A DNA stretch of 64,000 nucleotides from Taeniopygia guttata. Its lineage: Eukaryota > Chordata > Aves > Passeriformes > Estrildidae. Both the position numbers and the translations under genes were made by a program. Position 1 is the first letter of the stretch. Each line of letters opens with the position of its first letter. This document shows, in pieces, positions 18,201 to 51,200 of this stretch. Below the pieces are notes generated by a model. The model worked only from the letters and a program-made list of their open reading frames with translations, was not told the origin of the DNA and did no database searches. The stretch lies in the NCBI RefSeq assembly GCF_048771995.1, contig NC_133060.1, forward strand, positions 1,323,501 through 1,387,500. The letters run 5' to 3'.

Positions 18201-20701
18201 CCCCGCATTTTCCCCGCCCCAAGCGCCCCGCCAACCAGTTCGTGCCCAGGTCACACACAAAAATACACATTTTTATCATTTCCCTCCGGTTTTCAGCCAT
18301 TTCCCTCAAATTTCCATCCAGTTTTCTTCCATTTTCCTCAATTTTCCCAAAATTCCCTGAATTTTCCCCGCCCCAAGCGCCCCACCAACCAGTTCGTGCC
18401 CAGGTCACACACAAAAATCCAAATTTTTGTCACTTCCCTCCAGTTTTCATCCATTTTCCCAAAATTCCCTGAATTTTCTCTCAAATTTCACTTAATTTCC
18501 CCAAATTTCCCCGCATTTTCCCCGCCCCAAGCGCCCCGCCAACCAGTTCGTGCCCAGGTCACAGACACAAATACACATTTTTATCACTTCCCTCCAGTTT
18601 TCCTCCATTTCCCTGGATTTCCCTAAATTTCCTTGAAGTTTCTCTCCAATTTCACTTAATTTCCACAAATTTTCCCCAAATTTCCCCCAATTTTTCTCAA
18701 TTTTCCCAAAATTCCCTGAATTTTCTCTCCAATTCTACTTAGTTTTCCACAAATTTTGCTTCATTTCCCTGAATTTCCCCCAATTTCATTCAATTTTCCC
18801 AAATTTTTCTCAATTTCCCTGAGTTTTCCTTAATTTCCCCAAATTTTCCCAAATTTTCCTCAATTTCCCCGAATTTCCCCCAATTTCATTCCATTTTCCC
18901 AAATTTCCCTGAATTTCCCTAAATTTCCCTGAATTTTCTCTCCAATTCCACTTAATTTTCCGCAAATTTCCCCAAATTTTCCCAGAATTTCCCCAAATTT
19001 TCCTCAATTTCCCCAAATTTCCCTAAATTTCCCCCATTTTTTTCCCAATAACCCCCATTTCCCCCCCCAAAACCCCCATTTTTTCCCCCTCCAAAACCCC
19101 CATTTTTTCCCCCCAAAACCCCCATTTTCCCCCCAAAAAACCCCCATTTTTTCCTAATAACCCCCTTTCCCCCCCCAACCCCCATTTCCCCCCAAAAACC
19201 CCCATTTTCCCCCACCAAAACCCCCATTTTTTCCCCCCCAAAACCCCCATTTCCCCCCCCAAAAAAACCCAATTTTTTTCCCCCAAACCCCCATTTCCCC
19301 CCCAAACCCCCCATTTCCCCCAGAAAAAAACCCCCATTCTCCCCCCAAATCCCCATTTTTTCCTGAAGAAAATCCCAGTTTTTTCCCCCCAAATCCCCAT
19401 TTTTCCCAATAACCCCCATTTTTTCCCCCCAAAACCCCCATTTCCCCCCCAAAAAACCCAATTTTTTCCCCAAAAACCCTCATTTTCCCCCCAATAACCC
19501 CCATTTCCCCCAAAAACCCCCATTTTTCCCCTTCCAAAACCATTTCCCCCCAAAAAAACCCCATTTTTTCCCCAAAAACCCCCATTTTCCCCCCAAATCC
19601 CCATTTTTTCCCCCAAACACCCATTTTCTCCCAAATACCCATTTTTCCCCAAAAAAATCCCATTTTTTTTTCCCAAAACCCCCATTTCCCCCCCAATACC
19701 CCCATTTCCCCCCCCAAAAAATCCCATTTTTTTCCCAAAAACCCCCATTTTTTTCCCAATAACTTCCCATTTCCCCCCACAAAAAAACATTTTTTTTCCC
19801 AAAAACCCCCATTTTTTCCCCCCCAAATCCCCATTTTCCCCCCCAAAAAATGCAATTTTTTTTCCCAAAAACCCCCATTTCCCCCCCCACCAAAACCCCC
19901 ATTTTTTCCCCCCCAAAACCCCCATTTCCCCCCCCCAAAAAACCCAATTTTTTTCCCCCAAACCCCCATTTTTCCCCCCAAAAAACCCCCATTTCCCCCA
20001 GAAAAAAAACCCCATTCTCCCCCCAAATCCCCATTTTTTCCTGAAGAAAATCCCAGTTTTTTCCCCCCAAATCCCCATTTTTCCCAATAACCCCCATTTT
20101 TTCCCCCCAAAACCCCCATTTTTCCCCCCAATAAACCCCCATTTTTTTTCCCAAAAAACCCCCATTTTTTCCCCCTTCCAAAACCCCCTTTTCCCCCAAA
20201 TCCCCCATTTTTTCCCCCTCCAAAACCCCCATTTCCCCCCCAAGAAATCCCATTTTTTTCCCAAAAACCCCCATGTTTTCCCTTCCAAAACCCCCATTTA
20301 CCCCCATAAAAACCCATTTTTTTTCCCAAAAACACCCATTTTTTTTCCCCTTCCAAAACCCTCATTTTTCTCCCAAAAACCCCCATTCTCCCCCCAAATC
20401 CCCTTTTTTTCTTGAAGAAAATCCCAGTTTTTTCCCCCCAAATCCCCCATTTTTCCCAAAATCCCAATTTTTCCCCCCAAAACCCCCATTTCCCCCAACC
20501 CCCATTTTTCCCAAAATGCCGTTTTTTCTCCCCAACCCCCATTTTTCCCAAAATGCCGTTTTTTTCCCCCAAACCCCCATTTTTCCCAAAATCCCTGTTT
20601 TTCTCCCCAGGCTGTACGGGTTCAAGATCCACCCCATGGCGTACCAGCTGCAGCTCCAGGCCGCCAGCAACTTCAAGAGCCCCGTCAAGACCATCCGCTG
20701 A
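6168..20701 (+). CDS. CSNK2B: CSNK2B, casein kinase II regulatory subunit beta (5' end outside window; five coding exons)
   Basis: CK2 beta is the non-catalytic subunit of the protein kinase CK2 tetramer; it dimerises through a zinc finger and docks two catalytic alpha subunits. The five exons join without a frame break into 191 residues, corresponding to residues 25-215 of the 215-residue vertebrate protein, and match the human sequence as I remember it at every position. The acidic loop (DLEPDEELED) and the four zinc cysteines (YCPRVYC, YCPKC; Cys109, 114, 137, 140) are present, and the protein ends in SPVKTIR. The first coding exon (about 24 residues, MSSSEEV onward in other vertebrates) is not in the window, so the gene starts upstream. 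Exons total 576 nt in a 14.5-kb span; the introns are tandem repeats. No canonical AATAAA or ATTAAA is visible after the stop. The next gene, ABHD16A, is on the same strand 3.4 kb downstream. Confidence 0.97.
6271..8555 (+). repeat. CSNK2B intron, G-rich GGGGGTTTGAGGGGGTTTGG array
   Basis: The intron is made of imperfect units such as GGGGGTTTGGGGGGGTCAGGA, with dense runs of four or more G on the sense strand, so the transcript could form G-quadruplexes. The last ~150 bp shift to a GGGTCTCTGG repeat and then a C-rich acceptor tract. No gene is seen inside. Confidence 0.9.
8556..8671 (+). CDS. CSNK2B: CSNK2B exon (residues 59-97)
   Basis: The acceptor ctccccag is followed by bases completing Asp59, then [12 protein letters not shown] through RGIAQM. 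The donor is ATG|GTGGGA, phase 0. The last ~30 nt and the donor are repeated seven more times in the following intron. Reading past the first donor meets TGA after 27 codons, so this proximal donor must be used for a normal product. Confidence 0.96.
8672..9911 (+). repeat. Exon-tail array: seven further copies of the CSNK2B exon 59-97 3' edge plus donor
   Basis: Copies of ATCCTCACCAACCGCGGCAT followed by CGCCCAGATG and GTGGGACCCCC end at 8848, 9023, 9212, 9370, 9550, 9725 and 9911; the true exon ends at 8671. Spacing is 177, 175, 189, 158, 180, 175 and 186 bp. The last ten codons ([10 protein letters not shown]) are almost unchanged; one copy has GCGCAG and one GCTCAG. Between them lie CCACCCTGAGCC and GACCCCCCCCAAAT units. 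The copies have a donor but no obvious acceptor of their own. Confidence 0.92.
9912..14091 (+). repeat. CSNK2B intron, CCCATAACCCCCCTGAGACC array
   Basis: This C-rich satellite has units mixing CCCATAACCCCCCTGAGACC, CTCTGGGACACCCCCTAAGC and CCCCTGGGACCCCCCATGAG in variable order. It ends in a pure CCCCCCAGGA tract before the acceptor at 14091. No coding segment is seen. The long antisense open frames are repeat products. Confidence 0.88.
14092..14167 (+). CDS. CSNK2B: CSNK2B exon (residues 98-122 plus one base)
   Basis: The acceptor gcccccccag precedes [20 protein letters not shown], which holds the first zinc pair, Cys109 and Cys114. The donor GTACTG runs directly into an ACTGGGA minisatellite. 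Confidence 0.96.
14168..15035 (+). repeat. ACTGGGAGGG decamer minisatellite in CSNK2B intron
   Basis: The array starts at the donor (GTACTGGGACAAACTGGGAG) and continues as ACTGGGAGGG with interspersed GGATTTTGGGG variants. The same decamer with the same variants fills ABHD16A intron 12 at 49195-50660. Confidence 0.92.
15036..15614 (+). repeat. T-rich intron end with a 300-bp tandem duplication next to the acceptor
   Basis: The stretch from about 15105 to 15310 recurs at an offset of 300 bp (TTTCCCCCCACGGGATCCCT at 15111 and 15411) and runs up to the true acceptor at 15614. The duplication therefore repeats the polypyrimidine-rich intron end. Several ccccacag or cgcacag trinucleotide contexts inside could act as decoy acceptors. 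The AT/T-rich base composition contrasts with the flanking repeats. Confidence 0.85.
15615..15804 (+). CDS. CSNK2B: CSNK2B exon (residues 123-185, second zinc pair)
   Basis: The acceptor is tttttccag. The exon encodes [17 protein letters not shown] through KRPANQFVP plus two bases of an Arg codon, and carries Cys137 and Cys140. The donor is CAG|GTCTCA. Its 3' part recurs once as a 118-nt copy and three times as short copies in the next intron. Confidence 0.96.
15805..19030 (+). repeat. CSNK2B intron, AATTTTCCCCAAATTTCCC array with exon-tail copies
   Basis: The array consists of imperfect AATTTTCC, CAATTTCCCC and AAATTTCCCTG units. Four copies of the preceding exon's 3' edge are embedded: 17502-17619 (118 nt plus ~420 bp of the following intron, offset 1815 bp from the original) and short copies ending at 18249, 18403 and 18557 (154-bp period). 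All keep a GT donor (GTCTCA or GTCACA). Confidence 0.9.
17502..17619 (+). pseudogene. Duplicate 3' part of the CSNK2B exon 123-185
   Basis: The 118 nt encode [15 protein letters not shown] through KRPANQFVP and are essentially identical to the true exon at 15687-15804. The donor CAG|GTCTCA is kept and the downstream intron copy extends to about 18040. No acceptor-like tract lies directly upstream (TTTTCCCCAATCC), so this looks like a duplicated exon tail that is not itself a complete exon. Confidence 0.9.
19031..20610 (+). repeat. CSNK2B intron end, AACCCCCATTTTTTCCCCCC array
   Basis: The array is CCCCCATTTTTTCCCCCCAA with variants. A larger duplicated block is visible: the AAAATCCCAGTTTTTTCCCC context recurs near 19368, 20047 and 20417. 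No exon is seen. The long antisense frames ([15 protein letters not shown]) are repeat products. Confidence 0.88.
20611..20701 (+). CDS. CSNK2B: CSNK2B last exon (residues 186-215 and TGA)
   Basis: The acceptor ttctccccag is followed by the base completing Arg, then [14 protein letters not shown] and the C-terminus SPVKTIR with stop TGA at 20699-20701. The 3' UTR runs into a G/T-rich tandem repeat with no AATAAA seen. Confidence 0.96.
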
Positions 20702-22579: not shown

Positions 22580-24015
22580 TCGTTCCCATGGCAACGCCGC
22601 CATCTTGTCCCGCCCCTGTTTCCATAACAACGCCGCCATTTTGTCCCGCCCATATTTCCATGGCAACGCCGCCATTTTGTCCCGCCCCTGTTTCCATAAC
22701 AACGCCGCCATTTTGTCCCGCCCCTGTTTCCATGACAACGCCGCCATTTTGTCCCGCCCCTGTTTCCATAACAACGCCGCCATTTTGTCCCGCCCATATT
22801 TCCATAACAACGCCGCCATTTTGTCCCGCCCCTGTTTCCATAACAACGCCGCCATCTTGCACGTTATCATGACAACGCCGCCATTTTGTCCCGCCCATAT
22901 TTCCATGACAACGCCGCCATCTTGTCCCGCCCCTGTTTCTATAACAACGCCGCCATTTTGTCCCGCCTATATTCCCATGGCAACGCCGCCATTTTGTCCC
23001 GCCTATATTTCCATAACAACGCCGCCATTTTGTCCCGCCTATATTCCCATAACAACGCCGCCATTTTGTCCCGCCCCTGTTTCCATAACAACGCCGCCAT
23101 TTTGTCCCGCCTATATTCCCATAACAACGCCGCCATTTTGTCCCGCCCATGTTTCCATAACAACGCCGCCATTTTGTCCCGCCCATATTCCCATGGCAAC
23201 GCCGCCATTTTGTCCCACCCATATTCCCATGGCAACGCCGCCATTTTGTCCCGCCCCTGTTTCCATGGCAACGCCGCCATCTTGTCCCGCCCATATTCCC
23301 ATGGCAATGCCGCCATTTTGTCCCGCCCATGTTTCCATGACAACGCCGCCATTTTGTCCCGCCCCTGTTTCCATAACAATGCCGCCATTTTGTCCCGCCC
23401 ATTCTCCATGGCAACGCCGCCATTTTATCCCGCCCCCGTTTCTATGGCAACGCCGCCATTTTATCCCGCCCCTGTTTCCATGGCAACGCCGCCATTTTTG
23501 TCCCGCCCCTATTTCCATAACAACGCCGCCATTTTGTCCCGCCCCTGTTTCCATAACAACGCCGCCATTTTGTCCCGCCCCTGTTTCCATAACAACTCCG
23601 CCATTTTGTCCCACCCCTGTTTCCATGACAACGGCGCCATTTTGTCCCGCCCCCATTTCTATGGCAACGCCGCCATCTTGGACGTTATCATGACAACGCC
23701 GCCATTTTGTCCCGCCCCTGTTTCCATGGCAACGCCGCCATTTTGTCCCGCCTATATTCCCATGGCAACGCCGCCATTTTGTCCCGCCCCTGTTTCCATG
23801 GCAACGCCGCCTTCTTGCACGTTATCATGACAACGCCGCCATTTTGTCCCGCCCCTGTTTCCATGGCAACGCCGCCATCTTGCACGTTATCATGACAACA
23901 CCGCCATCTTGTCCCGCCCATATTTACACGGCAACGCCGCCATTTTGTCCCGCCCATATTTCCATGGCAACGCCGCCATCTTGCCCGTTATCATAACAAC
24001 GCCGCCATTTTTTCC
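22580..24015. promoter_or_regulatory. ~41-copy 36-bp array with RFX X-box-like, YY1-like and GC-box-like motifs upstream of ABHD16A
   Basis: The typical unit reads GTTTCCATGGCAACG then CCGCCATTTTGTCCCGCCCC, with a CATAACAAC alternative. Three known motif types are visible in each unit. GTTTCCATGGCAAC differs by one base from the palindromic RFX X-box GTTGCCATGGCAAC. CCGCCATTTTG is the complement of CAAAATGGCGG, the YY1 consensus. CCCGCCC resembles a Sp/KLF GC box. I counted 41 NCCGCCAT-type cores; a minority of units have a CACGTTATCATGACAAC spacer instead. The array stops about 90 bp before the ABHD16A start codon. Regulatory function is inferred from motif content and position only. Confidence 0.75.
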
Positions 24016-24104
24016 CCCGTTCCCATGACAACGCCCCACGCCGCCGCGGCCCCGCCCCGGAAGCGCCGTTTCCCGGTAGCGCCGCCGCTTCCGCCGCCGC
24101 CGTC
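24016..24104 (+). promoter_or_regulatory. ABHD16A proximal promoter / 5' UTR
   Basis: This short CpG-rich stretch carries a GC box (CCCCGCCCC, 24050-24058) overlapping an ETS/GABP-type CCGGAAG (24057-24063), and a second ETS core on the other strand (CTTCCG, 24088-24093). There is no TATA box, typical of a housekeeping promoter. The start codon context is strong (G at -3, G at +4). The transcription start cannot be placed exactly. Confidence 0.6.
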
Positions 24105-27200: not shown

Positions 27201-30200
27201 GGGGGTTTTGGGGGGATTTGGGGGGGGGTTTGGGTAAATTTGGGGGGAATTTGGGGGGATTTGGGGGGATTTTTGGGTGTTTTTGGGGGGATTTTGGGGG
27301 GATTTGGGGGATTTGGGGGGATTTGGGGGGGATTTCATGAGGATTTGGGGGGATTTGGGGGGATTTTGAGGGGATTTGGGGCAGATTTGGGGGGGTTTGG
27401 AGGGGATATGGGGGAGTTTTGTGGGGCAGATTTGGGGTGGGTTTGGGGGGAATTTTGGGGATTTGGGGGAATTCGGGGAGATTTGAGGCAATTTGGGGTT
27501 ATTTTTGGGCTGTTTCTTGGTTATTTTTGGGTTATTTTTGGGGTTTTTTTGGGCTGTTTTGGGCTGTTTTGGGTTATTTTTGGGCTGTTTTGGGAGGATT
27601 TTTAGGGATTATTTTGGGTTATTTATGGGTTACTTTTGGGGTATTTTTGGGTTATTTCTGGGTTATTTTTTGGGCTGATTTGGGGCTATATTTTGGGTTA
27701 TTTCTGGGTTATTTCTGGGCTATTTCTGGGTTATTTTTGTGCCATTTTTGTGCCATTTCTGTGCCATTTCTGTGCCATTTTTGTGCCATTTTTCCCCATT
27801 TCTCCCCCCAGGCCTGCTGACCATGTCCCGCGTGGTTCGGGGTTGTTTTGGGGGTCATTTTTGGGGGTTATTTTTGGGGTTATTTTTGGGCTTATTTTTG
27901 GGCTTATTTTTGGGCTTTTTTCTGGGTTATTTTTGGGTTATTTTTGGAGTTATTTTTGGGTTATTTTTGGGCTGGTTTGGGAGGATTTTTAGGGATTGTA
28001 TTGGGCTGTTTCTGGGTTATTTCTGGGCAGTTTCTGGGTTATTTCTGGGCTGTTTCTGGGTTATTTTTGGGTTATTTTTGGGGTTATTTCTGGGCTGATT
28101 TGGGCTATATTTTGGGTTATTTCTGGGCTGTTTCTGGGTTATTTCTGGGTTATTTTTGGGCTAATTTGGGCTATATTTTGGGTTATTTCTGGGCAGTTTC
28201 TGGGTTATTTCTGGGCTGTTTCTGGGCTATTTTTGGGCTGTTTTGGGAGGATTTTTAGGGATTATTTTGGGTTATTTCTGGGTTATTTTTGGGCTGATTT
28301 GGGCTATATTTTGGGCTATTTTTGGGTTACTTTTGGGCTGATTTGAGCTATATTTTGGGCAGTTTCTGGGTTATTTCTGGGCAGTTTCTGGGTTATTTCT
28401 GGGCTGTTTCTGGGTTATTTTTGGGTTATTTTTGGGGTTTTTTTTGGGCTGTTTTGAGTTATTTTTGGGGTTATTTTTGGGCAGTTTCTGGGTTATTTCT
28501 GGGCAGTTTCTGTGTTATTTTTGAGCTGATTTGGGCTATATTTTGGGTTATTTCTGGGTTATTTCTGGGCAGTTTCTGGGCTATTTTTGAGCTGTTTTGG
28601 GAGGATTTTTAGGGATTATTTTGGGTTATTTTACGGATTATTTTGGGTTATTTCTGGGTTATTTCTGGGCAGTTTCTGGGCTGTTTCTGGGCTATTTTTG
28701 GATTATTTTTGTGCCGTTTTTGGGTCATTTTTGGATGATTTTTGTGCCATTTCTCCCCAGGCCTGCTGACCATGTCCCGCGTGGTGCCCCTGTCCCACTG
28801 CGCCGCCACCCTGGGGCTGCTGCTGGCGGGGGTCGCGTGCCTGCGAGGTCAGGGGGGATTTTGGGGGTCCCACAGATTTTTGGGGGACCCCCAGGACCCC
28901 CCAAAAATGGTTTTGTGCCCCCCAACCCCAGGGCTGGGCCGCTGGAGCAACCCCCAGTACGTGGAGTTCATCGCCGCGCTGGAGGAGAGTCACCGCTCGG
29001 ACAGCGCCGAGAGCAGGGTGGGGTGGGATTTTGGGGGGATTTGGGGGGATTTGGGTGGGATTTTGGGGGATTTGGGGGGATTTGGGGGAGATTTGGGGCG
29101 ATTTGGGGGAGATTTAGGGGTGATATTGGGGGGATTTGGGGGTTTTGGGTGGGATTTTGGGGGATTTGGGGCGGATTTGGGGGGGATTTTGGGGGGATTT
29201 GGGGGGATTTTGGGGCTTTGGGGGGGATTTTGGGGTGATTTGGGGGGATTTGGGGGGGATTTGGGGGGATTTGGGGGGGATTTGGGGGGATTTTGGGGGG
29301 ATTTGGGGGGATTTGGGGGGGATTTGGGGCGATTTGGGGGAGATTTAGGGGTGATATTGGGGGGATTTGGGGGTTTTGGGTGGGATTTTGGGGGATTTGG
29401 GGCGGATTTGGGGGGGATTTTGGGGGGATTTGGGGGGATTTTGGGGCTTTGGGGGGGATTTTGGGGTGATTTGGGGGGATTTGGGGGGGATTTGGGGGGA
29501 TTTGGGGGGGATTTGGGGGGATTTTGGGGGGATTTGGGGGGATTTGGGGGGGATTTGGGGGGATTTGGGGGGGATTTGGGGGGATTTTGGGGAGATTTGG
29601 GGTGATTTGGGGGGGATTTGGGGGGGATTTGGGGGGATTTTGGGGTGATTTGGGGTGATTTTGGGTAAAATGGGGTGATTTTGGGAGATTTGGAGTGATT
29701 TTGGGTAAAATGGGGTGATTTTGGGTGATTTTGGAGAAATTAAGGGGGATTTGGGGGGGATTTGGGGTGATTTGGGGTGATTTTGGAGCATTATGGGGAG
29801 ATTTGGGGACATTTTAGGGAGATTTTGGGGTGATTTTGGGTAAAATGGGGAGATTTCGGGGCATTTGGGGGGATTTGGGGAGATTTTGGGGAGGTTTTCG
29901 GTGGGATTTGGGGGTTTTAGGGGGGTTTTGGGTGGGATTTTGAGGGGATTTGGGGGATTTTGGGGGGGATTTGGGGATTTTGGGTGGGATTTGGGGGGAT
30001 TTTGGGGTGATTTGGGTGGGATTTGAGGGGATTTTGGGAGATTTTGGGAGATTTGCGACCAAATGGGGAGATTTTGGGAAGATTTGGGGTGATTTTGGGG
30101 AGATATGGGGTGATTTTGGGGATATTTGGGGTGATTTTGGGGAGATTTTGGGTGATTTTGGGGCATTCTCGGGAGATTCTGAGGAGATTATGGGGAGAAT

Positions 30201-33200: not shown

Positions 33201-36200
33201 CCCAAAAGTGACCCCGGGACCCCAAAAGTGACCCTGGGACCCCAGAAATGACCCCAAAAGTGACCCCAGGACCCCAAAATTGACCCCAAGAGTGACCCCA
33301 GGACCCCAAAAGTGACCCCAGGACCCCAAAAGTGACCCCAAGAGTGACCCCAGGACCCCAAAACTGACCCCAGGACCCCAAAATTGACCCCAAAAGTGAC
33401 CCCAGAACCCCAAAAGTGACCCTGAAAGTGACTCCGGGACCCCAAAGGTGACCCTGGAACCCCAAAAATGACCCTGGGACCCCAAAAGTGACCCCAAAAC
33501 TGACCCCAAAAGTGACCCCGGGACCCCAAAAGTGACCCCAAGACCCCAAAAGTGACCCCAAAAGTGACCCTGTGACCCCAAAAGTGACCCCAAAAGTGAC
33601 CCCAAAATGACCTCTGCCCCCAGGCTGCTCCTGGCCCACACCATCGGCCGCCGGATGCTGTTCCCGGGCTCGGTGCGGCTGCTGCAGAGAGCGCTGCTGC
33701 CCGCCCTGCTGCAGGGCCAGGCCCGCCTGGTGGAGCAGGTGAGAGCCCCAAAACACCCCGAATTTATCCCAAAATATCCCCCAAAATATCCCTGAAAATA
33801 TCCCAAAAATATCCCGAAATATTCCTGAGATATTCATAAAAATATTCCAAAATATCCCTGAAATTCCCCACCCAGCCCCGCCCTGCTGCAGGGCCAGGCC
33901 CGCCTGGTGGAGCAGGTGAGAGCCCCAAAACACCCCGAATTTATCCCAAAATTCATCCCAAAATATCCCCCAAAATATCTCTGAGATAGCCCAAAGTATA
34001 CCTGAGATATTCCAAAATATTCCCCAAAATATCCCAAAATATCCCTGAAATTCCCCCCCCAGCCCCGCCCTGCTGCAGGGCCAGGCCCGCCTGGTGGAGC
34101 AGGTGAGAGCCCCAAAATATCCTAAATTTATCCCAAAATATCCCCCAAAATATCCCTGAAAATATCTCTGAGATATCCCAAAGTATACCTGAGATATTCC
34201 AAAATATTCCCCAAAATATCCCTGAAATTCCCCCCCCAGCCCCGCCCTGCTGCAGGGCCAGGCCCGCCTGGTGGAGCAGGTGAGAGCCCCAAAATACCCC
34301 GAATTTATCCCAAAATTCATCCCAAAATATCCCTGAAAATATCTCTGAGATAGCCCAAAGTATTCCTGAGATATCCCAAAATATTCCCCAAAATATCCCT
34401 GAAATTCCCCCCCCAGCCCCGCCCTGCTGCAGGGCCAGGCCCGCCTGGTGGAGCAGGTGAGAGCCCCAAAACACCCCAAATTTACCCCAAAATATCCCTG
34501 AAATATTCCCCAAAATATCCCAAAAATATTCCAAAGTATTCATGAAATATCCCAAAATATCCCTGAAATTCCCCCCCCAGCCCCGCCCTGCTGCAGGGCC
34601 AGGCCCGCCTGGTGGAGCAGGTGAGAGCCCCAAAATATCCTAAATTCATCCCAAAATATCCCTGAAATATTCCCCAAAATATCTCTGAGATATCCCAAAG
34701 TATCTCTGAGATATTCCAAAATATTCCCCAAAATATCCCTGAAATTCCCCCCCCAGCCCCGCCCTGCTGCAGGGCCAGGCCCGCCTGGTGGAGCAGGTGA
34801 GAGCCCCAAAACACCCCAAATTTACCCCAAAATAATCCCCAAAATATCCCCCAAAATATCTCTGAGATAGCCCGAAATATACCTGAGATATCCCAAAATA
34901 TTCCCCAAAATATCCCTGAAATTCCCACCCAGCCCCGCCCTGCTGCAGGGCCAGGCCCGGCTGGTGGAGCAGGTGAGAGCCCCAAAACACCCTAAATTCA
35001 TCCCAAAATATCCCCCAAAATATCCCCCAAAATATCCCAAAAATATCCCAAAGTATTCATGAAATATTCCTGAAAATATCCCAAAATATCCCTGAAATTC
35101 CCCCCCCAGCCCCGCCCTGCTGCAGGGCCAGGCCCGGCTGGTGGAGCAGGTGAGAGCCCCAAAATACCCCGAATTTATCCCAAAATATCCCTGAAATATT
35201 CCCCAAAATATCTCTGAGATAGCCCAAAGTATTCATGAGATATTCCAAAATATTCCCCAAAATATCCCTGAAATTCCCACCCAGCCCCGCCCTGCTGCAG
35301 GGCCAGGCCCGGCTGGTGGAGCAGGTGAGAGCCCCAAAATATCCCAAATTCATCCCAAAATTCATCCCAAAATATCCCTGAAAATATCCCAGAAATATCC
35401 CGAAATATCCCTGAGATATTCCAAAATATTCCCCAAAATATCCCTGAAATTCCCACCCAGCCCCGCCCTGCTGCAGGGCCAGGCCCGCCTGGTGGAGCAG
35501 GTGAGAGCCCCAAAATATCCTAAATTCATCCCAAAATATCCCTGAAATATTCCCCAAAATATCTCTGAAATATCCCGAAATATACCTGAGATATTCCTGA
35601 AAATATCCCAAAATATCCCTGAAATTCCCCCCCAGCCCCGTCCTGCTGCAGGGCCAGGCCCGCCTGGTGGAGCAGGTGAGAGCCCCAAAACATCCTAAAT
35701 TCACCCCAAAATATCCCTGAAATATTCCCCAAAATATCTCTGAAATATCCTGAAATATTCCCCAAAATATCCCTGAGATATCCCAAAGTATACCTGAAAT
35801 AGCCCTTAAAATATCCCTGAAATATCACAAAACAGTCCCCAAAATATCCATGAAATATCCCAAAATAGTCATGAAAATATCCCAAAATATCCCCCAAAAT
35901 ATCTCTGAAATATCCCGAAATATCCCCCAAAATATCCCTGAGATATTCCAAAATATTCCCCAAAATATCCCTGAAATTCCCACCCAGCCCCGCCCTGCTG
36001 CAGGGCCAGGCCCGCCTGGTGGAGCAGGTGAGAGCCCCAAAATATCCTGAATTCATCCCAAAATATCCCTGAAATATTCCCCAAAATATCCCAAAAATAT
36101 CCCAAAGTATTCATGAAATATTCCAAAATATTCCCCAAAATATCCCTGAAATTCCCCACCCAGCCCCGCCCTGCTGCAGGGCCAGGCCCGGCTGGTGGAG

Positions 36201-39200
36201 CAGGTGAGAGCCCCAAAACACCCCAAATTTATCCCAAAATATCCCTGAAATATTCCCCAAAATATCCCAAAAATATCCCAAAGTATTCCTGAAATATTCC
36301 AAAATATTCCCCAAAATATCCCTGAAATTCCCCCCCCAGCCCCGCCCTGCTGCAGGGCCAGGCCCGCCTGGTGGAGCAGGTGAGAGCCCCAAAATATCCC
36401 AAATTTACCCCAAAATATCCCCCAAAATATCCCTGAAAATATCCCAAAAATATCCCAAAATATACCTGAGATATTCCTTAAAATATGCCAAAATATCCCT
36501 GAAATTCCCACCCAGCCCCGCCCTGCTGCAGGGCCAGGCCCGCCTGGTGGAGCAGGTGAGAGCCCCAAAATATCCTAAATTCATCCCAAAATATCCCCCA
36601 AAATATCCCTGAAAATATCTCTGAAATATTCCAAAGTATTCCTGAAATATTCCAAAATATTCCCCAAAATATCCCTGAAATTCCCCACCCAGCCCCACCC
36701 TGCTGCAGGGCCAGGCCCGCCTGGTGGAGCAGGTGAGAGCCCCAAAATATCCCAAATTTATCCCAAAATATCCCTGAAATATTCCCCAAAATATCCCAAA
36801 AATATCCCAAAGTATTCATGAAATATTCCTGAAAATATCCCAAAATATCCCTGAAATTCCCCCCCCAGCCCCGCCCTGCTGCAGGGCCAGGCCCGCCTGG
36901 TGGAGCAGGTGAGAGCCCCAAAACACCCCGAATTTACCCCAAAATATCCCCCAAAATATCCCTGAAAATATCTCTGAGATATCCCAAAATATACCTGAGA
37001 TATTCCAAAATATTCCCCAAAATATCCCTGAAATTCCCCCCCCAGCCCCGCCCTGCTGCAGGGCCAGGCCCGCCTGGTGGAGCAGGTGAGAGCCCCAAAA
37101 CACCCCGAATTTACCCCAAAATATCCCCCAAAATATCCCTGAAAATATCTCTGAGATAGCCCAAAGTATCCCTGAGATATTCCAAAATATTCCCCAAAAT
37201 ATCCCTGAAATTCCCCACCCAGCCCCGCCCTGCTGCAGGGCCAGGCCCGCCTGGTGGAGCAGGTGAGAGCCCCAAAATATCCCAAATTCATCCCAAAATA
37301 TCCCCCAAAATATCCCTGAAAATATCTCTGAAATATCCTGAAATATCCCCCAAAATATCCCTGAGATATCCCAAAGTATACCTGAAATAGCCCTTAAAAT
37401 ATCCCTGAAATATCACAAAATGGTCCCCAAAATATCCATGAAATATCCCAAAATAGTCATGAAAATATCCCAAAATATCCCCCAAAATATCCCTGAAATA
37501 GCCCAAAATATCCCTGAAATATTCATGAAAATAGTCCCCAAAATATCCCTGAAATACCCCAAATATTCCTGAAATATCCCAAAATATCCCTGAAATACCC
37601 CAAAATATCCCTGAATTACCCCAGAATATTCCTGAAAGTATCCCAAAATATCCCCCAATGTATCCCCAAAATATCCCAAAAATATCCCAAAGTATCCCTG
37701 AGATATTCCTGAAAATATCCCAAAATATCCCTGAAATTCCCCCCCCAGCCCCGCCCTGCTGCAGGGCCAGGCCCGCCTGGTGGAGCAGGTGAGAGCCCCA
37801 AAATATCCTAAATTCATCCCAAAATATCCCTGAAATATCCCCCAAAATATCCCAAAAATATCTCTGAAATAGCCCAAAATATTCCCCAAAATATCCATTA
37901 AATATTCCAAAATAGTCCCCAAAATACCCCTGAAATATTCCAAAATATTCCTTAAAATATTCCCCAAAATATCCATGAATTTATCCCAAATTATCCCCCA
38001 AAATACCCCAAAATATCCCTTAAAATATTCCTGAAATATCCCAAAATATTCCTGAAAATACCCCAAAATATCCCTGAAATATCCCCCAAAATATCCCCAA
38101 AATTTATCCCAGAATATCCCTCAAATATCCCAAAATATTCCAAAATATCCCCAAAATCCCCCCAAATTCCCCAAAACCGCCCCAAAATCCCCCAAAATCG
38201 CCCCAAATCTCAAAATCCCCCCAAATTCCCCAAATCCCCCTAAATCCCCCCAAATCCCCCCAAATCCCCCCAAATCCCCCCAAAATCCCCCCAAAATCCC
38301 CCCAAATCCCCCCAAAATCCCCCCAAAATCCCCCCAAATCCCCCCAAATCCCCCCCAAATCCCCCTAAATCCCCCCAAATACCCCCAAATCCCCCCCAAA
38401 TCCCCCCAAAACCCCCCAAATCCCCCCCAAATCCCCCCCAAATCCCCCCAAATCCCCCCAAAATCCCCCCAAATCCCCCCAAAATCCCCCCAAAATCCCC
38501 CCAAATCCCCCCAAATCCCCCCCAAATCCCCCTAAATCCCCCCAAATACCCCCAAATCCCCCCCAAATCCCCCCAAAATCCCCCCAAATCCCCCCAAATC
38601 CCCCCCAAATCCCCCCAAATCCCCCCCAAATCCCCCCAAAATCCCCCCAAATCCCCCCCAAAATCCCCCAAATCCCCCCAAATCTCCGCAAATCCCCCCC
38701 AAATCCCCCCAAATCCCCCTCCCCACAGTTTGGGGGGCAGCGGGCCAAGCTGGTGGCGTGTGACGGGAACGAGATCGACGCCATGGTCATCGACCGGCGC
38801 GGGAGAGACCCCCGAGGGGACACCCTGGTGGGATTTGGGGGTCCCTGGGGGGGTTTTGGGGGTCCCAGAGTGGTTTTGGGGTGATTTTGGGGGTCCCTGG
38901 GGGATTTGGGGGGGATTTTGGGGGTCCTTGGGGGGATTTTGGGGGTCCCTGGTGTAATTTAGAGGTTTTTTTGGGGGATTTGGGGGGTCCCAGGGGGGTT
39001 TGGGGGGTCCCATGGGGGATTTGGGACACCCTGGTGGGGTTTTGGGGGGTCCCTGGGGGGGTTCTGGGGGGATTTTGGGGGTCCCTGGGGGGATTTTGGG
39101 GGTCCCTGGGGGGGTTTTGAGGGTCCCTGGGGGGATTTGGGGGTCCCGGGGGGGGGGTTTGGGGGTCCCTGGTGGGGTTTTGGGGTCCCAGAGTGGTTTT

Positions 39201-42200: not shown

Positions 42201-45200
42201 TTGGGGGATTTTGGGTGGGATTTTGGGGGATTTTGGGTGGGATTTTGGAGGGATTGGGGTTGGATTTTGGGTTGGATTTTGGGTGGGATTTTGGGGGGTT
42301 TTGGATCGAATTTTGGGGTTGGATTTTGGGTGGGATTTTGGGGGGTTTTGGATCAAATTTTGGGGTTGGATTTTGGGTGGGATTTGGGGTTGGATTTTGG
42401 GTGGGATTTTGGGTGTTTTGAGTCAGATTTGGGGTTTTTTTGGGTTGAATTTTGGGGTGTTTTCTGTCGCATTTTGGGGGGTTTTGTGTTGCTTTTTGTG
42501 GGTTTTGGGGTCAGATTTGGGGTTTTTCGAGTCTCCCTCAGCTCTCTGCAGATTTTGGGGGGGGGGGGAGGGGCCGTCGCTGCCCCTCCCCCCCATTTTT
42601 GGGGGTCCCAAATCCCGGAGTGACCCCCCCGTGTTCCCCCCCCCCCAGCCGGGTACTCGGTGCTGGGCTGGAACCACCCGGGATTCGGGGGCAGCACCGT
42701 GAGTTGGGGGTCCCGGGGGGATTTGGGGGGGTTTGGGGGATTTAGGGGGGTCCTGGGGGGATTTGGGGGGATTTGGGGGGGATTTGGGGGGATTTGGGGG
42801 GGATTTGGGGGGGATTTGGGGGGATTTGGGGGGGATTTGGGGGATTTAGGGGGGTCCTGGGGGGATTTGGGGGGGATTTGAGGGGGATTTAGGGGGGATT
42901 TGGGGGGATTTGGGGGGGATTTGGGGGTCCCTGGGGAGGATTTGGGGGGGATTTGGGGGGGATTTGGGGGGATTTTTGGGGGTCCCAGGGGGGATTTGGG
43001 GGGGATTTGGGGGTCCCAGGGGGGGATTTGGGGGTCCCTGGGGGGGATTTGGGGGTCACAGGGGGGATTTGGGGGGGATTTGGGGGGGCTCAGGGGGGAT
43101 TTGGGGGGATTTGGGGGGTCCCTGGGGTGATTCGGGGGGATTTGGGGGAGATTTGGGGGGGATTTGGGGAGATTTTGGGGGTCCCTGGGGGGATTTGGGG
43201 GTTTTTTGGGGGTCCCAGAGTGGTTTTGGGGGGATTTTGGGGGTCCCAGGGGGGATTTTGGGGTTCCCTGGTGGGATTTTGGGGTTCCAAGGGGGATTTT
43301 GGGGGTCACAAAGGGGATTTGGGGGGATTTGGGGGGATTTGGGGGATTTTGGGGGGGATTTGGGGGATTTTGGGGGGGATTTGGGGGGGATTTGAGGGGA
43401 TTTGGGGGGATTTGGGGGGGATTTGGGGGGGATTTGGGGGGTCCTGGGGGGGTTTTTGGGGGTCCTACGTGGGGATTTGGGGTCCCAGGGGGGATTTGGG
43501 GGGATTTTGGGGGGGATTTGGGGGAGATTTGGGGGGATTTGGGGGTCCCTGGGGGGGATTTGGGGGTCCCGGGGGGATTTGGGGGGATTTGGGGGGATTT
43601 GGGGGGGATTTGGGGGATTTTGGGGGGATTTGGGGGGATTTGGGGGGTCCTGGATGGATTTTGGGATCCCTGGGGGGATTTTGGGGCGTCCCAGGGGGGA
43701 TTTGGGGGGGATTTGGGGGGGATTTGGGGGGATTTGGGGAGGATTTGGGGGGATTTGGGGGGATTTGGGGGGGATTTGGGGAAATTTGGGGGGTCCCGGG
43801 GGGATTTTGGGGGTCCCACGGGGGATTTGGGGGATTTGGGGGGGATTTGGGGGGATTTGGGGGGGATTTGGGGGGTCCCAGGTGGGATTTTGGGGGTCCC
43901 GGGGGGGGTTTTGGGGTTTTTTTGGGTGGATTTTGGTGCTTTTGGGGCGAATTTTTTGGGTTTTTTGGGGTTTTTAAGGGTCCCCGAATTCGGAATTTTT
44001 TGGGGGTTTTTTTGGGGTGTCGGGGCGGATTTTGGGGGTCCCAGGTGGGGATTTGGGGGGGTTTTTGGGTGCATTTTGGGTGGATTTTGGTGCATTTTGG
44101 TGCATTTTTAATGGATTTTTTGGGGATTTTTTGGGGTTTTTGGGGCTCCCCGAACCCGGAATTTTTTGGGGTTTTTTTTGGGGTGCCGGGGCGGATTTTG
44201 GGGGTCCCCCTGACCCCCCCGGCCCCTCCCCAGGGGGTTCCCCTCCCCCAGAGCGAGGCCAATGCCATGGACGTGCTGCTGATTTTGGGGCATTTTTTGG
44301 GTTTTTTTTTGGGATTTTTCGGGTTTTTGGGGGTCCCAAACCCGGAATTTTTTGGGGTTTTTTTTGGGGTGTCGGGGCAGATTTTGGGGGTCCCAGGGGG
44401 GATTTTGGGGGGTCCCAGGAGGGTTTTGGGGTTTTTTTTGGGTGTATTTGGGTGGATTTTGGTGCATTTTTTGAGTTTTTTTTGGGATTTTTGGGGTTTT
44501 TGGGGTTCCCGAATCCGGAATTTTTTGGGGTTTTTTTTGGGGTGCCGGGGCGGATTTTGGGGGTCCCAGGGGGGGATTTTGGTGCAATTTTTGGGTGGAT
44601 TTTTTTGCATTTTGGGTGGATTTTGGTGCATTTTGGGTGGATTTTGGTGCATTTTTTGATGGATTTTTTGGGTTTTTTGGGGTTTTTGGGGGTCCCCGAA
44701 CCCGGAATTTTTTGGGGTTTTTTTTGGGGTGTCGGGGCAGATTTTGGGGGGTCCCAGGGGGGGATTTTGGGGGTTTTTTGCGTGGATTTTGGTGCATTTT
44801 GGGTGGATTTTGGTGCATTTTGGGTGGATTTTGGTGCATTTTTGGGTTTTTTTTGCTGTTTTTTGGGGTTTTTGGGGGTCCCCGAACCCGGAATTTTTTG
44901 GGGTTTTTTTTGGGGTGTCGGGGCGGATTTTGGGGGTCCCCCTGACCCCCCTGGACCCTCCCCAGGGGGTTCCCCTCCCCCAGAGCGAGGCCAATGCCAT
45001 GGACGTGCTGCTGATTTTGGGGCATTTTTTGGGTTTTTTTTGGGGGTCCCCAAACCCGGAATTTTTTGGGGTTTTTTTGGGGTGTCGGGGCAGATTTTGG
45101 GGGGTCCTGGGGGGGATTTGTGGGGTCCCATGGGAGGATTTGGGGGGGTTTTTGGGTGGATTTTGGTGCATTTTGGGTGGATTTTGGTGCATTTTGGGTA

Positions 45201-48200
45201 CATTTTGGTGCATTTTTTTGGGGATTTTTGGGGTTTTTGGGGGTCCCCGAACCCGGAATTTTTTGGGGTTTTTTTTGGGGTGTTGGGGCGGATTTTGGGG
45301 GGTCCCAGGGGGGATTTGGGGTTTTTTTGGGTGTATTTTGGTGCATTTGGGGTGGATTTTGGTGCATTTTGGGTGGATTTTGGTGCATTTTTTGAGGTTT
45401 TTTTTGGGTTTTTTGGGGTTTTTGGGGCTCCCCGAACCCGGAATTTTTTGGGGTTTTTTTTGGGGTGTCGGGGCGGATTTTGGGGGGTCCCAGGGGGGAT
45501 TTTGGGGTTTTTTGGGTGCATTTTGGTGCATTTTGGGTGGATTTTGGGTGTATTTTTGGGGGTTATTTTGCTGTTTTTTGGGGTTTTTGGGGCTCCCCGA
45601 ACCCGGAATTTTTTGGGGGTTTTTTTGGGGTGCCGGGGCAGATTTTGGGGGTCCCCCTGACCCCCCCGGCCCCTCCCCAGGGGGTTCCCCTCCCCCAGAG
45701 CGAGGCCAATGCCATGGACGTGCTGCTGATTTTGGGGCATTTTTGGGGTTTTTTTTGGGGTTTTTGGGGTTTTTGGGGGTTTCTGGTTATGGGGTTTTTT
45801 TTGGGGTGTCGGGGCAGATTTTGGGGGGTCCCAGGGGCGATTTTGGGGGTCCCAGGGGGGTTTTTGGGGGGGTCCTGGGTGGATTTTTGAGGGTCCCAGG
45901 GGGGATTTTGGTGCATTTTTTGGGGTTTTTTTGCTGTTTTTTGGGGTTTTTGGGGGTCCCCGAACCCGGAATTTTTTGGGGTTTTTTTTGGGGTGTCGGG
46001 GCGGATTTTGGGGGTCCCCCTGACCCCCCCGGCCCCTCCCCAGGGGGTTCCCCTCCCCCAGAGCGAGGCCAATGCCATGGACGTGCTGCTGATTTTGGTG
46101 CATTTTTTGGGGGATTTTTGGGTTTTTGGGGCTCCCCGAACCCGGAATTTTTTGGGGTTTTTTTTGGGGTGTCGTTGCGGATTTTGGGGGGTCCCAGGGG
46201 GGGATTTTGGGGGTCCCGGGGGGGTTTTGAGGGGTTTTTTAGGTGCATTTTGGTGCATTTTTTATGGATTTTTTGGGGTTTTTTTTGGTTTTTTGGGGTT
46301 TTTGGGGCTCCCCGAACCCGGAATTTTTTGGGGTTTTTTTTGGGGTGTCGGGGCAGAATTTGGGGGGTCCCAGGGGGGGATTTTGGGGGTCCCAGGGAGG
46401 GATTTTGGGGGTGTTTTTGGGTGGATTTTGGTGCATTTTGCGTGGATTTTGGTGCATTTTTTGGGGGATTTTTTGGGATTTTTGGGGTTTTTGGGGCTCC
46501 CCGAACCCGGAATTTTTTTGGGTTTTTTTTGGGGTGTCGGGGCAGATTTTGGGGGTCCCAGGTGGGGATTTGGGGGGGGTTTTGGGTGCATTTTGGTGCA
46601 TTTTGGGTGGATTTTGGTGCATTTTTTGAGGTTTTTTTTGGTTTTTTTGGGGTTTTTGGGGGTCCCCGAACCCCGAATTTTTTGGGTTTTTTTTTGGGGT
46701 GTCGGGGCAGATTTTGGGGGTTTTTTTGGGTGGATTTTGGTGCATTTTGGGGGTTTTTTGGGTGCATTTTGGGTGCATTTTGCTGCATTTTTTATGGATT
46801 TTTTGGGGTTTTTTTTGGGTTTTTTGGGGTTTTTGGGGCTCCCCGAACCCGGAATTTTTTGGGGTTTTTTTTGGGGTGCCGGGGCAGATTTTGGGGGTCC
46901 CCCTGACCCCCCCGGCCCCTCCCCAGGGGGTTCCCCTCCCCCAGAGCGAGGCCAATGCCATGGACGTGCTGCTGATTTTGGGGCATTTTTTGGGGGATTT
47001 TTTGGGGTTTTTTTGGGTTTTTGGGGCTCCCCGAACCCGGAATTTTTTGGGGTTTTTTTTGGGGTGTCGGGGCGGATTTTGGGGGTCCCAGGGGGGATTT
47101 TGGGGGTCCCAGGGGGGGATTTTGGGTTTTTTTGGGTGGATTTTGGTGCATTTTGGGTGGATTTTGGTGCATTTTGGGTGCATTTGGGTGCATTTTGGGT
47201 GCATTTTTTGAGGTTTTTTTTTGGTTTTTTGGGGTTTTTGGGGCTCCCCGAACCCGGAATTTTTTGGGGTTTTTTTTGGGGTGTCGGGGCGGATTTTGGG
47301 GGGTCCCAGGGCAGAATTTTTGGGTGTTTTGGGTGCATTTTGGTGGATTTTGGTGCATTTTTTATGGATTTTTTGGGGTTTTTTTTGGTTTTTTGGGGTT
47401 TTTGGGGCTCCCCGAACCCGGAATTTTTTGGGGGTTTTTTTGGGGTGTCGGGGCGGATTTTGGGGGTCCCAGGGGGGGATTTGGGGGGTCCCAGGGGGAA
47501 TTTTGGAGTATTTTTGGGTGGATTTTGGTGCATTTTTTGGGGTTTTTTTTGGTTTTTTGGGGTTTTTGGGGCTCCCCGAACCCGGAATTTTTTGGGGTTT
47601 TTTTTGGGGTGCCGGGGCAGATTTTGGGGGGTCCCCCTGACCCCCCCGGCCCCTCCCCAGGGGGTTCCCCTCCCCCAGAGCGAGGCCAATGCCATGGACG
47701 TGCTGCTGATTTTGGGGCATTTTTGGGGTTTTTTTTGGGATTTTTGGGGTTTTGGGGCTCCCCGAACCCGGAATTTTTTGGGGTTTTTTTTGGGGTGTCG
47801 GGGCAGATTTTGGGGGTCCCAGGGGGGGATTTGGGGGGTCCCGGGGGGGGGGATTTGGGGGTTTTTTAGGTGCATTTTGCTGCATTTTGGTGTTTTTGGG
47901 GCAAATTTTTTGGGGTTTTTTGGGGTTTTTGGGGGTCCCCGAACCCGGAATTTTTTGGGGTTTTTTTTGGGGTGTCGGGGCAGATTTTGGGGGGTCCCGG
48001 GGGGGGATTTTGGGGGTCCCAGGGGGGGATTTTGGGGTTTTTTGGGTGCATTTTGGTGCATTTTTTGGGGGTTTTTTTGGGTTTTTTGGGGTTTTTGGGG
48101 GTCCCCGAACCCGGAATTTTTTGGGGTTTTTTTTGGGGTGTCGGGGCAGATTTTGGGGGTCCCAGGGGGGTTTGGGGTTTTTTTGGGGTTTTTTTTGGGT

Positions 48201-51200
48201 GTATTTGGGTGGATTTTGGTGCATTTTGGGTACATTTTGGTGCATTTTTTTGGGATTTTTGGGGTTTTTGGGGGTCCCCGAACCCGGAATTTTTTGGGGT
48301 TTTTTTTGGGGTGTCGGGGCAGATTTTGGGGGTCCCCCTGACCCCCCCGGCCCCTCCCCAGGGGGTTCCCCTCCCCCAGAGCGAGGCCAATGCCATGGAC
48401 GTGCTGCTGATTTTGGTCCATTTTTTGGGGGATTTTTTAGGATTTTTGGGGTTTTTGGGGGTTTCTGGTTTTGGGGTTTTTTCTGGGGTGTCGGGGCAGA
48501 TTTTGGGGGGTCCCAGGGGGGGATTTTGGGGGTCCCAGGGGGGTTTTTGGAGGGGTCCTGGGTGGATTTTTGGGGGTCCCAGGGGGGATTTTGGTGCATT
48601 TTTTGGGGATTTTTTGGGGTTTTTGGGGCTCCCCGAACCCGGAATTTTTTGGGGTTTTTTTTGGGGTGTCGGGGCGGATTTTGGGGGTCCCCCTGACCCC
48701 CCCGGCCCCTCCCCAGGGGGTTCCCCTCCCCCAGAGCGAGGCCAATGCCATGGACGTGCTGCTGATTTTGGGGGTTTTTTTGGGGGATTTTTTTGGTTTT
48801 TTGGGTTTTTTGGGGCTCTCCAAACCCGGAATTTTTTGGGGTTTTTTTTGGGGTGTCGGGGCAGATTTTGGGGGGTCCCAGGGGGGGATTTTGGGGATCC
48901 CAGGGGGAATTTTTGGGTTTTTTAGGTGCATTTTTATGGATTTTTTGGGGTTTTTTTTGGGATTTTGGGGGTTTTTGGGGCTCCCCGAACCCGGAATTTT
49001 TTGGGTTTTTTTTTGGGGTGCCGGGGCAGATTTTGGGGGTCCCCCTGACCCCCCCGGCCCCTCCCCAGGGGGTTCCCCTCCCCCAGAGCGAGGCCAATGC
49101 CATGGACGTGGTGATTCGCTTCGCGCTGCAGCGGCTCCGCTTCGCCCCCCCCAACATCGTCCTGTACGCCTGGTCCATCGGGGGCTTCACTGGTACGGAC
49201 TGGGAGCACTGGGAGGGACTGGGAGGGACTGGGAGGGGATTGGGAGGGGATTAGAGGTCACTGGGAGGGGATTTGGGGGCACTGGGACGGACTGGGAGGG
49301 AACTGGGAGGGGGTTGGGGGGGACTGGGGGGAGATTTGGGGGGGACTGGGAGGGACTGGGATGGACTGGGAGGGACTGGGAGAGGATTTTGGGGGGATTG
49401 GGGGGGACTGGGAGGGGATTGGGGGGGACTGGGAGGGACTGGGAGGGACTGGGGGATACTGGGAGGGGTTTGGGGGGGACTGGGAGGGACTGGGATTAAC
49501 TGGGAATGGACTGAGAGGGACTGGGAGGGGATTTTGGGGGATTGGGGGGGACTGGGAGGGACTGGGATTAACTGGGACGGACTGGGAGGGACTGGGAGGG
49601 GATTGGGGGGAATTGGGAGGGAACTGGTTTATACTGGGAGGGGACTGGGAGCACTGGGATTAACTGGGAGGGGACTGGGGGGGACTGGGAGGGACTGGGA
49701 GGGACTGGGAGGGACTGGGAGGGACTGGGAGGGACTGGGAGCACTGGGAGGGACTGGGAGGGACTGGGAGGGACTGGGAGGGACTGGGAGGGACTGGGAG
49801 GGGATTGGGGGGGATTTTGGGGCGATTGGGGGGGACTGGGAGGGGACTGGGATGGACTGGGACGGACTGGGAGAGGGGCTGGGGGGGACTGGGAGGGACT
49901 GGGAGGGAAATGGTTTATACTGGGATGGGACTGGGAGGGCACTGGGAGGGACTGGGATTAACTGGGAATGGACTGGGAGCACTGGGAGGGGATTGGGAGG
50001 GGATTGGGGGTCACTGGGATGGACTGGGAGGGAGTGGGGGATACTGGGAGGGACTGGGAGGGGATTTTGGGGGGATTGGGAGGGACTGGGATTAACTGGG
50101 AGGGGATTGGGAGGGACTGGGAGGGGATTGGGAGGGGATTTTGGGGGGATTGGGGGGGACTGGGAGGGACTGGGAGGGACTGGGAGGGGACTGGGTTATA
50201 CTGGGAGGGACTGGGAGGGACTGGGAGGGGCTGGGAGGGACTGGGAGGGGATTGGGGGGGGACTGGGAGGGACTGGGAGGGACTGGGAGGGGGTTGGGGG
50301 GCACTGGGAGGGACTGGGAGGGGATTTTGGGGGGATTGGGGGCACTGGGATATACTGGGAGGGGATTTGGGGGGTCTGGGAGGGACTGGGAGGGACTGGG
50401 AGGGACTGGGAGGGACTGGGAGGGGATTCTGGGGGGATTGGGAGTTACTGGGAGGCACTGGGAGGGTAGTTTGGGGGGACTGGGACGGACTGGGATTAAC
50501 TGGGAATGGACTGGGAGAGACTGGGGGATACTGGGAGGGACTGGGGGGCACTGGGAGGGACTGGGAGGGACTGGGAGGGGATTTTGGGGGGATTGGGGGT
50601 CATTTGGGGGGCACTGGAGAGGACTGGGGGGGACTGGGAGGGAACTGGGATATACTGGGGGTCTCCCGCAGCCACCTGGGCCGCCATGTCCTACCCCGAG
50701 CTCGGGGGTCCCCATCCCCATTTCGGGGGTCCCCATCCCCATTTCGGGGGTCCCTCTCCCCATTTCGGGGGTCCCCATCCCCATTTTGGGGGTCCCCATC
50801 CCCATTTCGGGGGTCCCCATCCCCATTTTTGGGGTCCCCATCCCCATTTTGGGGGTCCCCATCCCCATTTTTGGGGTCCCCATCCCCATTTTGGGGTCCC
50901 CATCCCCATTTCGGGGGTCCCCATCCCCATTTTTGGGGTCCCCATCCCCATTTCGGGGGTCCCCATCCCCATTTCGGGGGTCCCCATCCCCATTTTTGGG
51001 GTCCCCATCCCCATTTCGGGGGTCCCCATCCCCATTTCGGGGGTCCCCATCCCCATTTTGGGGTCCCCATCCCCATTTCGGGGGTCCCTCTCCCCATTTT
51101 TGGGGTCCCCATCCCCATTTCGGGGGTCCCCATCCCCATTTTTGGGGTCCCCATCCCCATTTTGGGGGTCCCCATCCCCATTTCGGGGGTCCTCTCCCCA

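What the first reader, a model, noticed from the sequence alone, without database searches (positions are those of the whole stretch)
33739..37790. Twenty tandem 40-nt microexon-like copies of the ABHD16A exon 8 tail, each with acceptor and strong donor
Seen: 20 copies of the last ~36 nt of exon 8, nearly all on a 175-177 bp period, each flanked by a pyrimidine/C run ending in CAG and by CAG|GTGAGAG. The original exon has no acceptor at this internal point, so the acceptor arose with the repeat unit. A 40-nt insert shifts the frame: joined between exons 8 and 9 it gives TGA inside exon 9 after GTT TGG GGG GCA GCG GGC. Three inserts (120 nt) would stay in frame. Inference: this could act as a cassette of poison exons or decoy sites, or be a neutral repeat tolerated because the proximal donor wins.
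Basis: partly seen in the sequence, partly recalled or inferred. Interest (0 to 1): 0.85.

Follow-up and report, generated by a model that had tools for sequence, protein, structure and literature searches.

The report
Exon stuttering in finch ABHD16A
A songbird gene carries twenty broken-off copies of the end of one of its exons inside the next intron, a recently described kind of local DNA stutter on tiny bird chromosomes that most likely does nothing to the gene but leaves a row of ready-made false exons.

Summary
After ABHD16A exon 8 (33624-33738), 20 further 40-nt copies of its tail were found (33876-37788). Each is preceded by a C-rich AG and followed by exon 8's own strong donor. The assembled protein is 100% identical to zebra finch ABHD16A.

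It is not unique here. A published screen's settings, applied to this window, give 41 partial exon copies in 6 of 23 introns of ABHD16A and CSNK2B. All 41 are on the coding strand, touch an exon border and lie in the adjacent intron. This matches "exon stuttering", described in 2026 for chicken dot chromosomes (PMC12954441).

The copies most likely arose by local tandem duplication across the exon 8/intron 8 border, were shuffled, and are spliced out with the intron. The exon-like block is no better conserved than its intronic flanks. A sister array lacking any fair donor is equally invariant. No homologue examined contains the copies.

New here: an acceptor at the same place in every copy makes complete pseudo-exons. 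They shift frame if one or two are inserted, but one used instead of exon 8 keeps it. No RNA data were available.

The parts
33624..33738 (+). ABHD16A coding exon 8 (115 nt), source of the copies; the copied part is 33700-33738
33739..37790 (+). stuttered array in intron 8: 20 exon-tail copies on a ~176-bp period, each with AG before and GTGAGAG after
33876..33915 (+). copy 1
34063..34102 (+). copy 2
34240..34279 (+). copy 3
34417..34456 (+). copy 4
34581..34620 (+). copy 5
34757..34796 (+). copy 6
34933..34972 (+). copy 7 (CGC to CGG)
35110..35149 (+). copy 8 (CGC to CGG)
35285..35324 (+). copy 9 (CGC to CGG)
35461..35500 (+). copy 10
35636..35675 (+). copy 11 (one C to T)
35676..35987 (+). 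long interval (copy ends 352 bp apart, about 2 periods) without an exon copy
35988..36027 (+). copy 12
36164..36203 (+). copy 13 (CGC to CGG)
36340..36379 (+). copy 14
36516..36555 (+). copy 15
36693..36732 (+). copy 16 (one G to A)
36869..36908 (+). copy 17
37046..37085 (+). copy 18
37223..37262 (+). copy 19
37263..37748 (+). long interval (copy ends 526 bp apart, about 3 periods) without exon copies
37749..37788 (+). copy 20
38729..38827 (+). ABHD16A exon 9, where a single inserted copy produces a stop
8818..9911 (+). sister case: 7 copies of the tail of the window's second CSNK2B exon (8556-8671) in the next intron
17502..18557 (+). sister case: 4 copies (118, 36, 36, 36 nt) of the tail of the window's fourth CSNK2B exon (15615-15804)
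27812..27836 (+). sister case: 1 copy of the head of ABHD16A exon 4 (28761-28847) with its acceptor
44234..48758 (+). sister case: 8 copies of the head of ABHD16A exon 12 (49069-49192) with its acceptor
50672..50710 (+). sister case: 1 copy of the head of ABHD16A exon 13 (51636-51740) with its acceptor

Best explanation
This is exon stuttering: local tandem amplification of a DNA block spanning an exon/intron border, on what is probably a repeat-rich bird dot chromosome. Step 1 (inferred from the junction shared by all 20 copies): one duplication joined a point about 137 nt inside intron 8 to a point inside exon 8, 39 nt before its end. The junction happened to create an AG behind a C-rich tract, so every later copy inherited it. 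Step 2 (pattern shown, process inferred): the ~176-bp unit multiplied to 20 exon-bearing copies and variants were shuffled among units. Step 3 (inferred): exon 8 and its own equally strong donor stay intact and come first in the transcript, so the copies are normally removed with the intron. They are at most a source of rare mis-spliced, mostly NMD-targeted RNA. The array is a near-neutral by-product of a mutational process, tolerated because it leaves the coding sequence untouched.
For: The coding sequence is intact: 20 exons, 544 aa, 100% identical to zebra finch ABHD16A. The published screen settings, applied here, give 41 proximal and 0 distal hits at 42.1 bits or more. All 41 are plus-strand and touch an exon border, in 6 of 23 introns. 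Copied exon parts are 25-118 nt, median 39; published values are 20-187, median 36. The exon block (6 of 720 minor letters) is no more conserved than its donor-side flank (0 of 270) or acceptor-side flank (2 of 347); the sub-repeat middle varies (187 of 1642). In the exon 12 head array all 8 copies are 100% identical over the first 42 exon bases, although no GT within 25-200 nt downstream scores above -0.3 as a donor and their spacer varies. 201 of 253 pairs of biallelic columns fail the four-gamete test, and identity does not fall with distance (Mantel r 0.05, p 0.68). No two of the 18 aligned units are identical (best 0.977), which argues against an assembly echo.
Against: The e8 array is the only one of three tail arrays here with an acceptor at the same distance in every copy; the other two have acceptors of 0.4 or more only in 1 of 7 and 3 of 4 copies, at varying distances. 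Its donors match the strongest real donor in the window. Such sites could be used in some tissue. Intraspecies length variation, a main feature of the published phenomenon, was not testable, and the chromosome was not shown. The four-gamete failures could partly reflect repeated changes in sub-repeats rather than exchange. 6 of 23 introns is well above the 190 of 5572 published for chicken dot chromosomes (Fisher p 1e-4), but this window was picked for its repeats, covers only two genes, and my hits had neither the paper's manual review nor its filter on hits with several sources.
Confidence: 0.87

Rival explanations
1. Poison-exon cassette: copies are included at a regulated rate, shift the frame and send the RNA to decay, so copy number tunes ABHD16A level.
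For: Every copy has AG and a top-rank donor; one or two copies give a premature stop. Acceptor/donor pairs at least as good as the weakest copy, 30-200 nt apart, occur 31 times in the array and once elsewhere in the introns.
Against: Acceptors are weak to moderate, the CTGA-type branch candidate is 13-14 nt from the AG, the exon block is not specially conserved, and no homologue with the copy-derived peptides was found among those examined. One-copy products would be too short.
Confidence: 0.07
2. Alternative exon 8: a copy is used in place of exon 8, giving an in-frame protein short of 25 residues.
For: Exon 7 joined to copy 1 joined to exon 9 stays in frame to the normal end (519 aa).
Against: One chance in three by length alone; exon 8's own acceptor lies upstream and scores 1.3, inside the copies' range of 0.4-2.5; none of the 120 listed homologues holds the expected junction peptide.
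Confidence: 0.04
3. Assembly artefact: copy number inflated by misassembly of a repeat.
For: Such introns are hard to sequence and assemble; the published work warns of technical variation.
Against: No two of 18 aligned units are identical; five other borders in the window show the same kind of copying; in chicken PHF8 the general structure of such repeats was verified with raw nanopore reads by an independent group.
Confidence: 0.03

Closest known systems
Exon stuttering / sequence stuttering of chicken dot chromosomes (Hron et al. 2026, PMC12954441)
   Same: Edge fragments of a coding exon with the adjacent splice site, repeated in direct orientation inside the neighbouring intron only; exon intact; introns filled with imperfect tandem repeats; similar copy length and number.
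   Different: Zebra finch instead of chicken (the paper says local repeat expansions were seen in some other birds too); ABHD16A and CSNK2B are not named in its main text (its supplementary gene list was not seen); here each e8 copy also carries an acceptor and is a complete pseudo-exon; a higher share of introns is affected in this two-gene window.
Intronic minisatellites (VNTRs), recalled
   Same: Tandem units of tens to hundreds of bp, shuffled variants.
   Different: The unit contains coding sequence and a splice border.
Poison exons, recalled
   Same: Insertion of one copy shifts the frame and gives a premature stop.
   Different: No special conservation of the element, no evidence of inclusion, 20 near-identical copies.
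Arrays of mutually exclusive exons such as Dscam, recalled
   Same: Many tandem exon-like copies, phase-compatible with the exon they would replace.
   Different: Copies are only the last third of the exon and almost identical.

Membership tests
[quoted passage not shown]
   20 copies after exon 8; 41 of 41 hits in the window proximal and on the plus strand, 0 distal
Exon stuttering (PMC12954441) | BLASTn bit score at or above the 42.1 cut-off and above a shuffled-intron control | tested here: met
   e8 hits 69.9-77.8 bits; one shuffle per intron gave no hit of 20 nt or more
Exon stuttering (PMC12954441) | Source segment at the exon border (over 90% within 1 base in chicken) | tested here: met
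   41 of 41
Exon stuttering (PMC12954441) | Coding exon itself unaltered | tested here: met
   544-aa reading frame, 100% identical to the deposited zebra finch protein
Exon stuttering (PMC12954441) | Intron densely filled with simple/tandem repeats | tested here: met
   Lag analysis with 176-177 bp dominant in intron 8; Tandem Repeats Finder rows at the start of the intron (whose list was cut after 150 of 412 rows)
Exon stuttering (PMC12954441) | Location on a dot chromosome (190 of 236 introns in chicken) | tested here: inconclusive
   The contig holding the identical protein is 4,884,911 bases; chicken dot chromosomes are about 4 Mb and include chromosome 16; the chromosome of this window was not shown, and the genome search was unreachable
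Exon stuttering (PMC12954441) | Intron length varies between individuals | not testable with these tools
   No reads or second haplotype held
Poison exon | Inclusion triggers a premature stop | tested here: met
   One or two copies do, three do not
Poison exon | Element conserved more than surrounding intron | tested here: not met
   Among copies: exon block 6/720 minor letters against 0/270 and 2/347 in the intronic flanks. Conservation between species was not testable
Poison exon | Observed inclusion in RNA, raised when decay is blocked | not testable with these tools
   No RNA data held
Neural microexon (SRRM4 type, recalled) | UGC element just upstream of the acceptor | tested here: not met
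   No TGC in the 45 nt upstream of copy 1 or in the last 22 nt upstream of any of the 20 copies

The most novel reading that the evidence does not exclude
Stuttering at an exon border has here built a mutable splicing dial: 20 two-sided, phase-matched pseudo-exons whose number changes between individuals and whose occasional use, as poison exons or as a short substitute for exon 8, sets the output of ABHD16A, so that intron copy number becomes heritable expression variation.
Probability: 0.06. Interest if true: 0.85.

Novelty: new member of a known kind. Interest (0 to 1): 0.42.

Why it matters
Exon stuttering was described in 2026, chiefly from chicken. This window shows it at high density in a songbird, at both tail and head borders of two genes. 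The ABHD16A array is a clean natural test of how splicing ignores, or fails to ignore, twenty identical strong donors and complete pseudo-exons beside a real exon. It also offers a readable record of how the units arise and shuffle.

Tried and rejected
Selection on the copies: the exon block looked conserved against the whole spacer, but its immediate intronic flanks are just as invariant and the exon 12 head array, without a fair donor, shows the same. Rejected as evidence of function.

A common ~176-bp period (nucleosome scale): the second CSNK2B exon's array also averages about 177 bp and three single steps of the exon 12 array are 353-363 bp, but top lags of 100 bp or more in other introns scatter widely. 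Left as a curiosity.

Sequential tandem growth, where neighbours are most alike: not supported (Mantel r 0.05, p 0.68).

Source of the junction sequence ACCCAGCCCC: no other exact match in the window.

Copy-derived peptides in deposited proteins: none in the 120 listed of 944 homologues, nor the exon 7-to-copy junction peptide in the same 120 (11 of these lack my exon 8 head pattern, which I did not follow up). A region search with a hypothetical three-copy isoform gave 307 candidates and none at E 1 or better. Truncated one-copy products would be too short for that search's length filter, so their absence means nothing.

Literature searches. One search paired ABHD16A with splicing (56 papers, 15 listed) and I saw nothing about intron copies in the listing. 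PMC12954441 was read as abstract, sections 7 and 9 whole, section 8 part 1 and passages. PMC9974502 was read as passages only. All others were search listings.
Full report
What is there. The window carries CSNK2B (five exons seen, 6168-20701) followed by ABHD16A (20 coding exons, 24105-61383), both on the + strand. Pfam identifies ABHD16_N and CK_II_beta. The joined ABHD16A reading frame is 544 aa and 100% identical to the deposited zebra finch protein P0001, which lies on a contig of 4,884,911 bases. The CSNK2B part, 191 aa, matches residues 25-215 of a solved casein kinase II beta chain over its whole length. So ABHD16A is intact.

The array. After exon 8 (33624-33738), 20 more copies of its last 39 nt plus one junction base were found. 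The true exon end and the 20 copy ends are spaced 164-187 bp apart, with two longer intervals of 352 and 526 bp, about two and three periods. All 20 have AG before and GT after. The donor is exon 8's own, identical in every copy, and the highest-scoring of 23 real donors (6.9; next 6.7); its U1 pairing is -11.1 kcal/mol. The acceptors score 0.4-2.5, in the lower half of 24 real acceptors (-1.8 to 13.0). Exon 8's own acceptor is 1.3 and exon 9's 2.8. The splice matrices are recalled approximations. Donors this strong are rare by chance: 21 of 1644 intronic GTs, 20 of them in intron 8. Acceptors of this grade are common: 210 of 1506 intronic AGs, copies included. With an unrounded cut-off of 0.4, 16 of 20 copies pass; the other four fall just below. 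The CTGA-type branch candidate checked lies 13-14 nt from the AG, closer than usual (recalled).

Frames. One inserted copy gives a stop in exon 9. Two give one just inside exon 10. Three keep the frame (584 aa). All 20 give a stop. Extending exon 8 to a later donor meets a stop after 18 intronic codons (three donors tested).

It is one of six. A self-comparison, and then the published exon-stuttering screen settings applied to the 23 introns, give 41 partial exon copies. There are 20 after ABHD16A exon 8, 8 before exon 12, 1 before exon 4, 1 before exon 13, 7 after the second CSNK2B exon in the window and 4 after the fourth. All 41 are plus-strand, in the adjacent intron and touching the exon border; no distal hit reached 42.1 bits; one shuffle of each intron gave no hit of 20 nt. 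That is 6 of 23 introns. Published for chicken dot chromosomes: 190 of 5572, a difference with Fisher p 1e-4. This window was chosen for its repeats and my hits had no manual review, so the comparison is biased.

Selection or not. In 18 aligned units (the true exon end and 17 of the 20 copies; copies 11 and 19, followed by long intervals, and the last copy were left out), the exon block has 6 of 720 minor letters. The first 15 intronic bases after it have 0 of 270, and the 24 columns before the C tract 2 of 347. The sub-repeat middle has 187 of 1642. Invariance therefore follows the non-repetitive core, not the exon. The exon 12 head array is a control: its copies carry an acceptor, but no GT within 25-200 nt downstream scores above -0.3 as a donor. 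Yet all 8 are 100% identical over the first 42 exon bases while the spacer varies. I therefore see no sign that splicing keeps the copies.

How it grew. All 20 copies share the junction, so one founding duplication is the simplest start (inference). Variants are shuffled: 201 of 253 column pairs fail the four-gamete test, and nearer units are not more alike (Mantel r 0.05, p 0.68). Repeated change within 10-11-bp sub-repeats may add to this. No two of the 18 units are identical, so a simple assembly echo is unlikely.

What is known. Hron and colleagues (PMC12954441; abstract, sections 7 and 9, part 1 of section 8 and passages read) describe this kind of thing in chicken. A lateral part of an exon with its donor or acceptor is copied through the adjacent intron, with 1-44 copies of 20-187 bp (median 36), the exon left intact, and introns varying in length between birds. 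They saw local repeat expansions in some other birds too. They note that potential alternatively spliced transcripts are created, and report no RNA test in the parts I read. Dot chromosomes in chicken include chromosome 16 (PMC9974502, passages), which carries the chicken MHC (PMC4988538, listing only). ABHD16A and CSNK2B have no occurrence in the main text of PMC12954441 and zebra finch one, in the introduction. The supplementary gene list was not available.

RNA. None was available. Proteins: among 120 listed homologues of 944, none holds the copy-derived peptides or the exon 7-to-copy junction peptide. A targeted search with a hypothetical three-copy isoform found nothing.

Verdict. A real, striking, but already explained kind of feature: a new member of exon stuttering, with the twist that each unit is a complete two-sided pseudo-exon. 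Interest 0.42; the splicing-dial reading is kept at 6%.

Noticed in passing
22582-23987: About 40 copies of a 36-bp repeat just upstream of the ABHD16A start codon. It holds a YY1-like core (GCCGCCATTTTG, 26 exact, 39 with up to one mismatch) and an X-box/RFX-like stretch (3 exact, 31 with up to two mismatches); neither exact motif occurs elsewhere in the window (counted over 22501-24104). Motif names are recalled. A stuttered promoter element?
   Followed up: partly
15805-18557: A 1815-bp lag in the CSNK2B intron after exon 15615-15804: a copy with 118 nt of the exon tail (17502-17619), then three 36-nt copies 154 bp apart; three of these four have acceptors of 2.8 or more upstream but weak donors.
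   Followed up: partly
44234-49069: Head copies of ABHD16A exon 12 spaced by 353-363 bp or longer steps of 701-883 bp; the e8 and second CSNK2B exon arrays have periods near 176-177 bp. Possibly coincidence.
   Followed up: partly
P0025 (Myotis brandtii predicted ABHD16A): The segment corresponding to exon 8 appears twice in this predicted bat protein: a tandem exon duplication or a model error.
   Followed up: no
P0004, P0006, P0008 (songbird ABHD16A models): These deposited songbird models contain stretches that look like translated intron at exon joins, as if repeat-filled introns confuse gene prediction.
   Followed up: no
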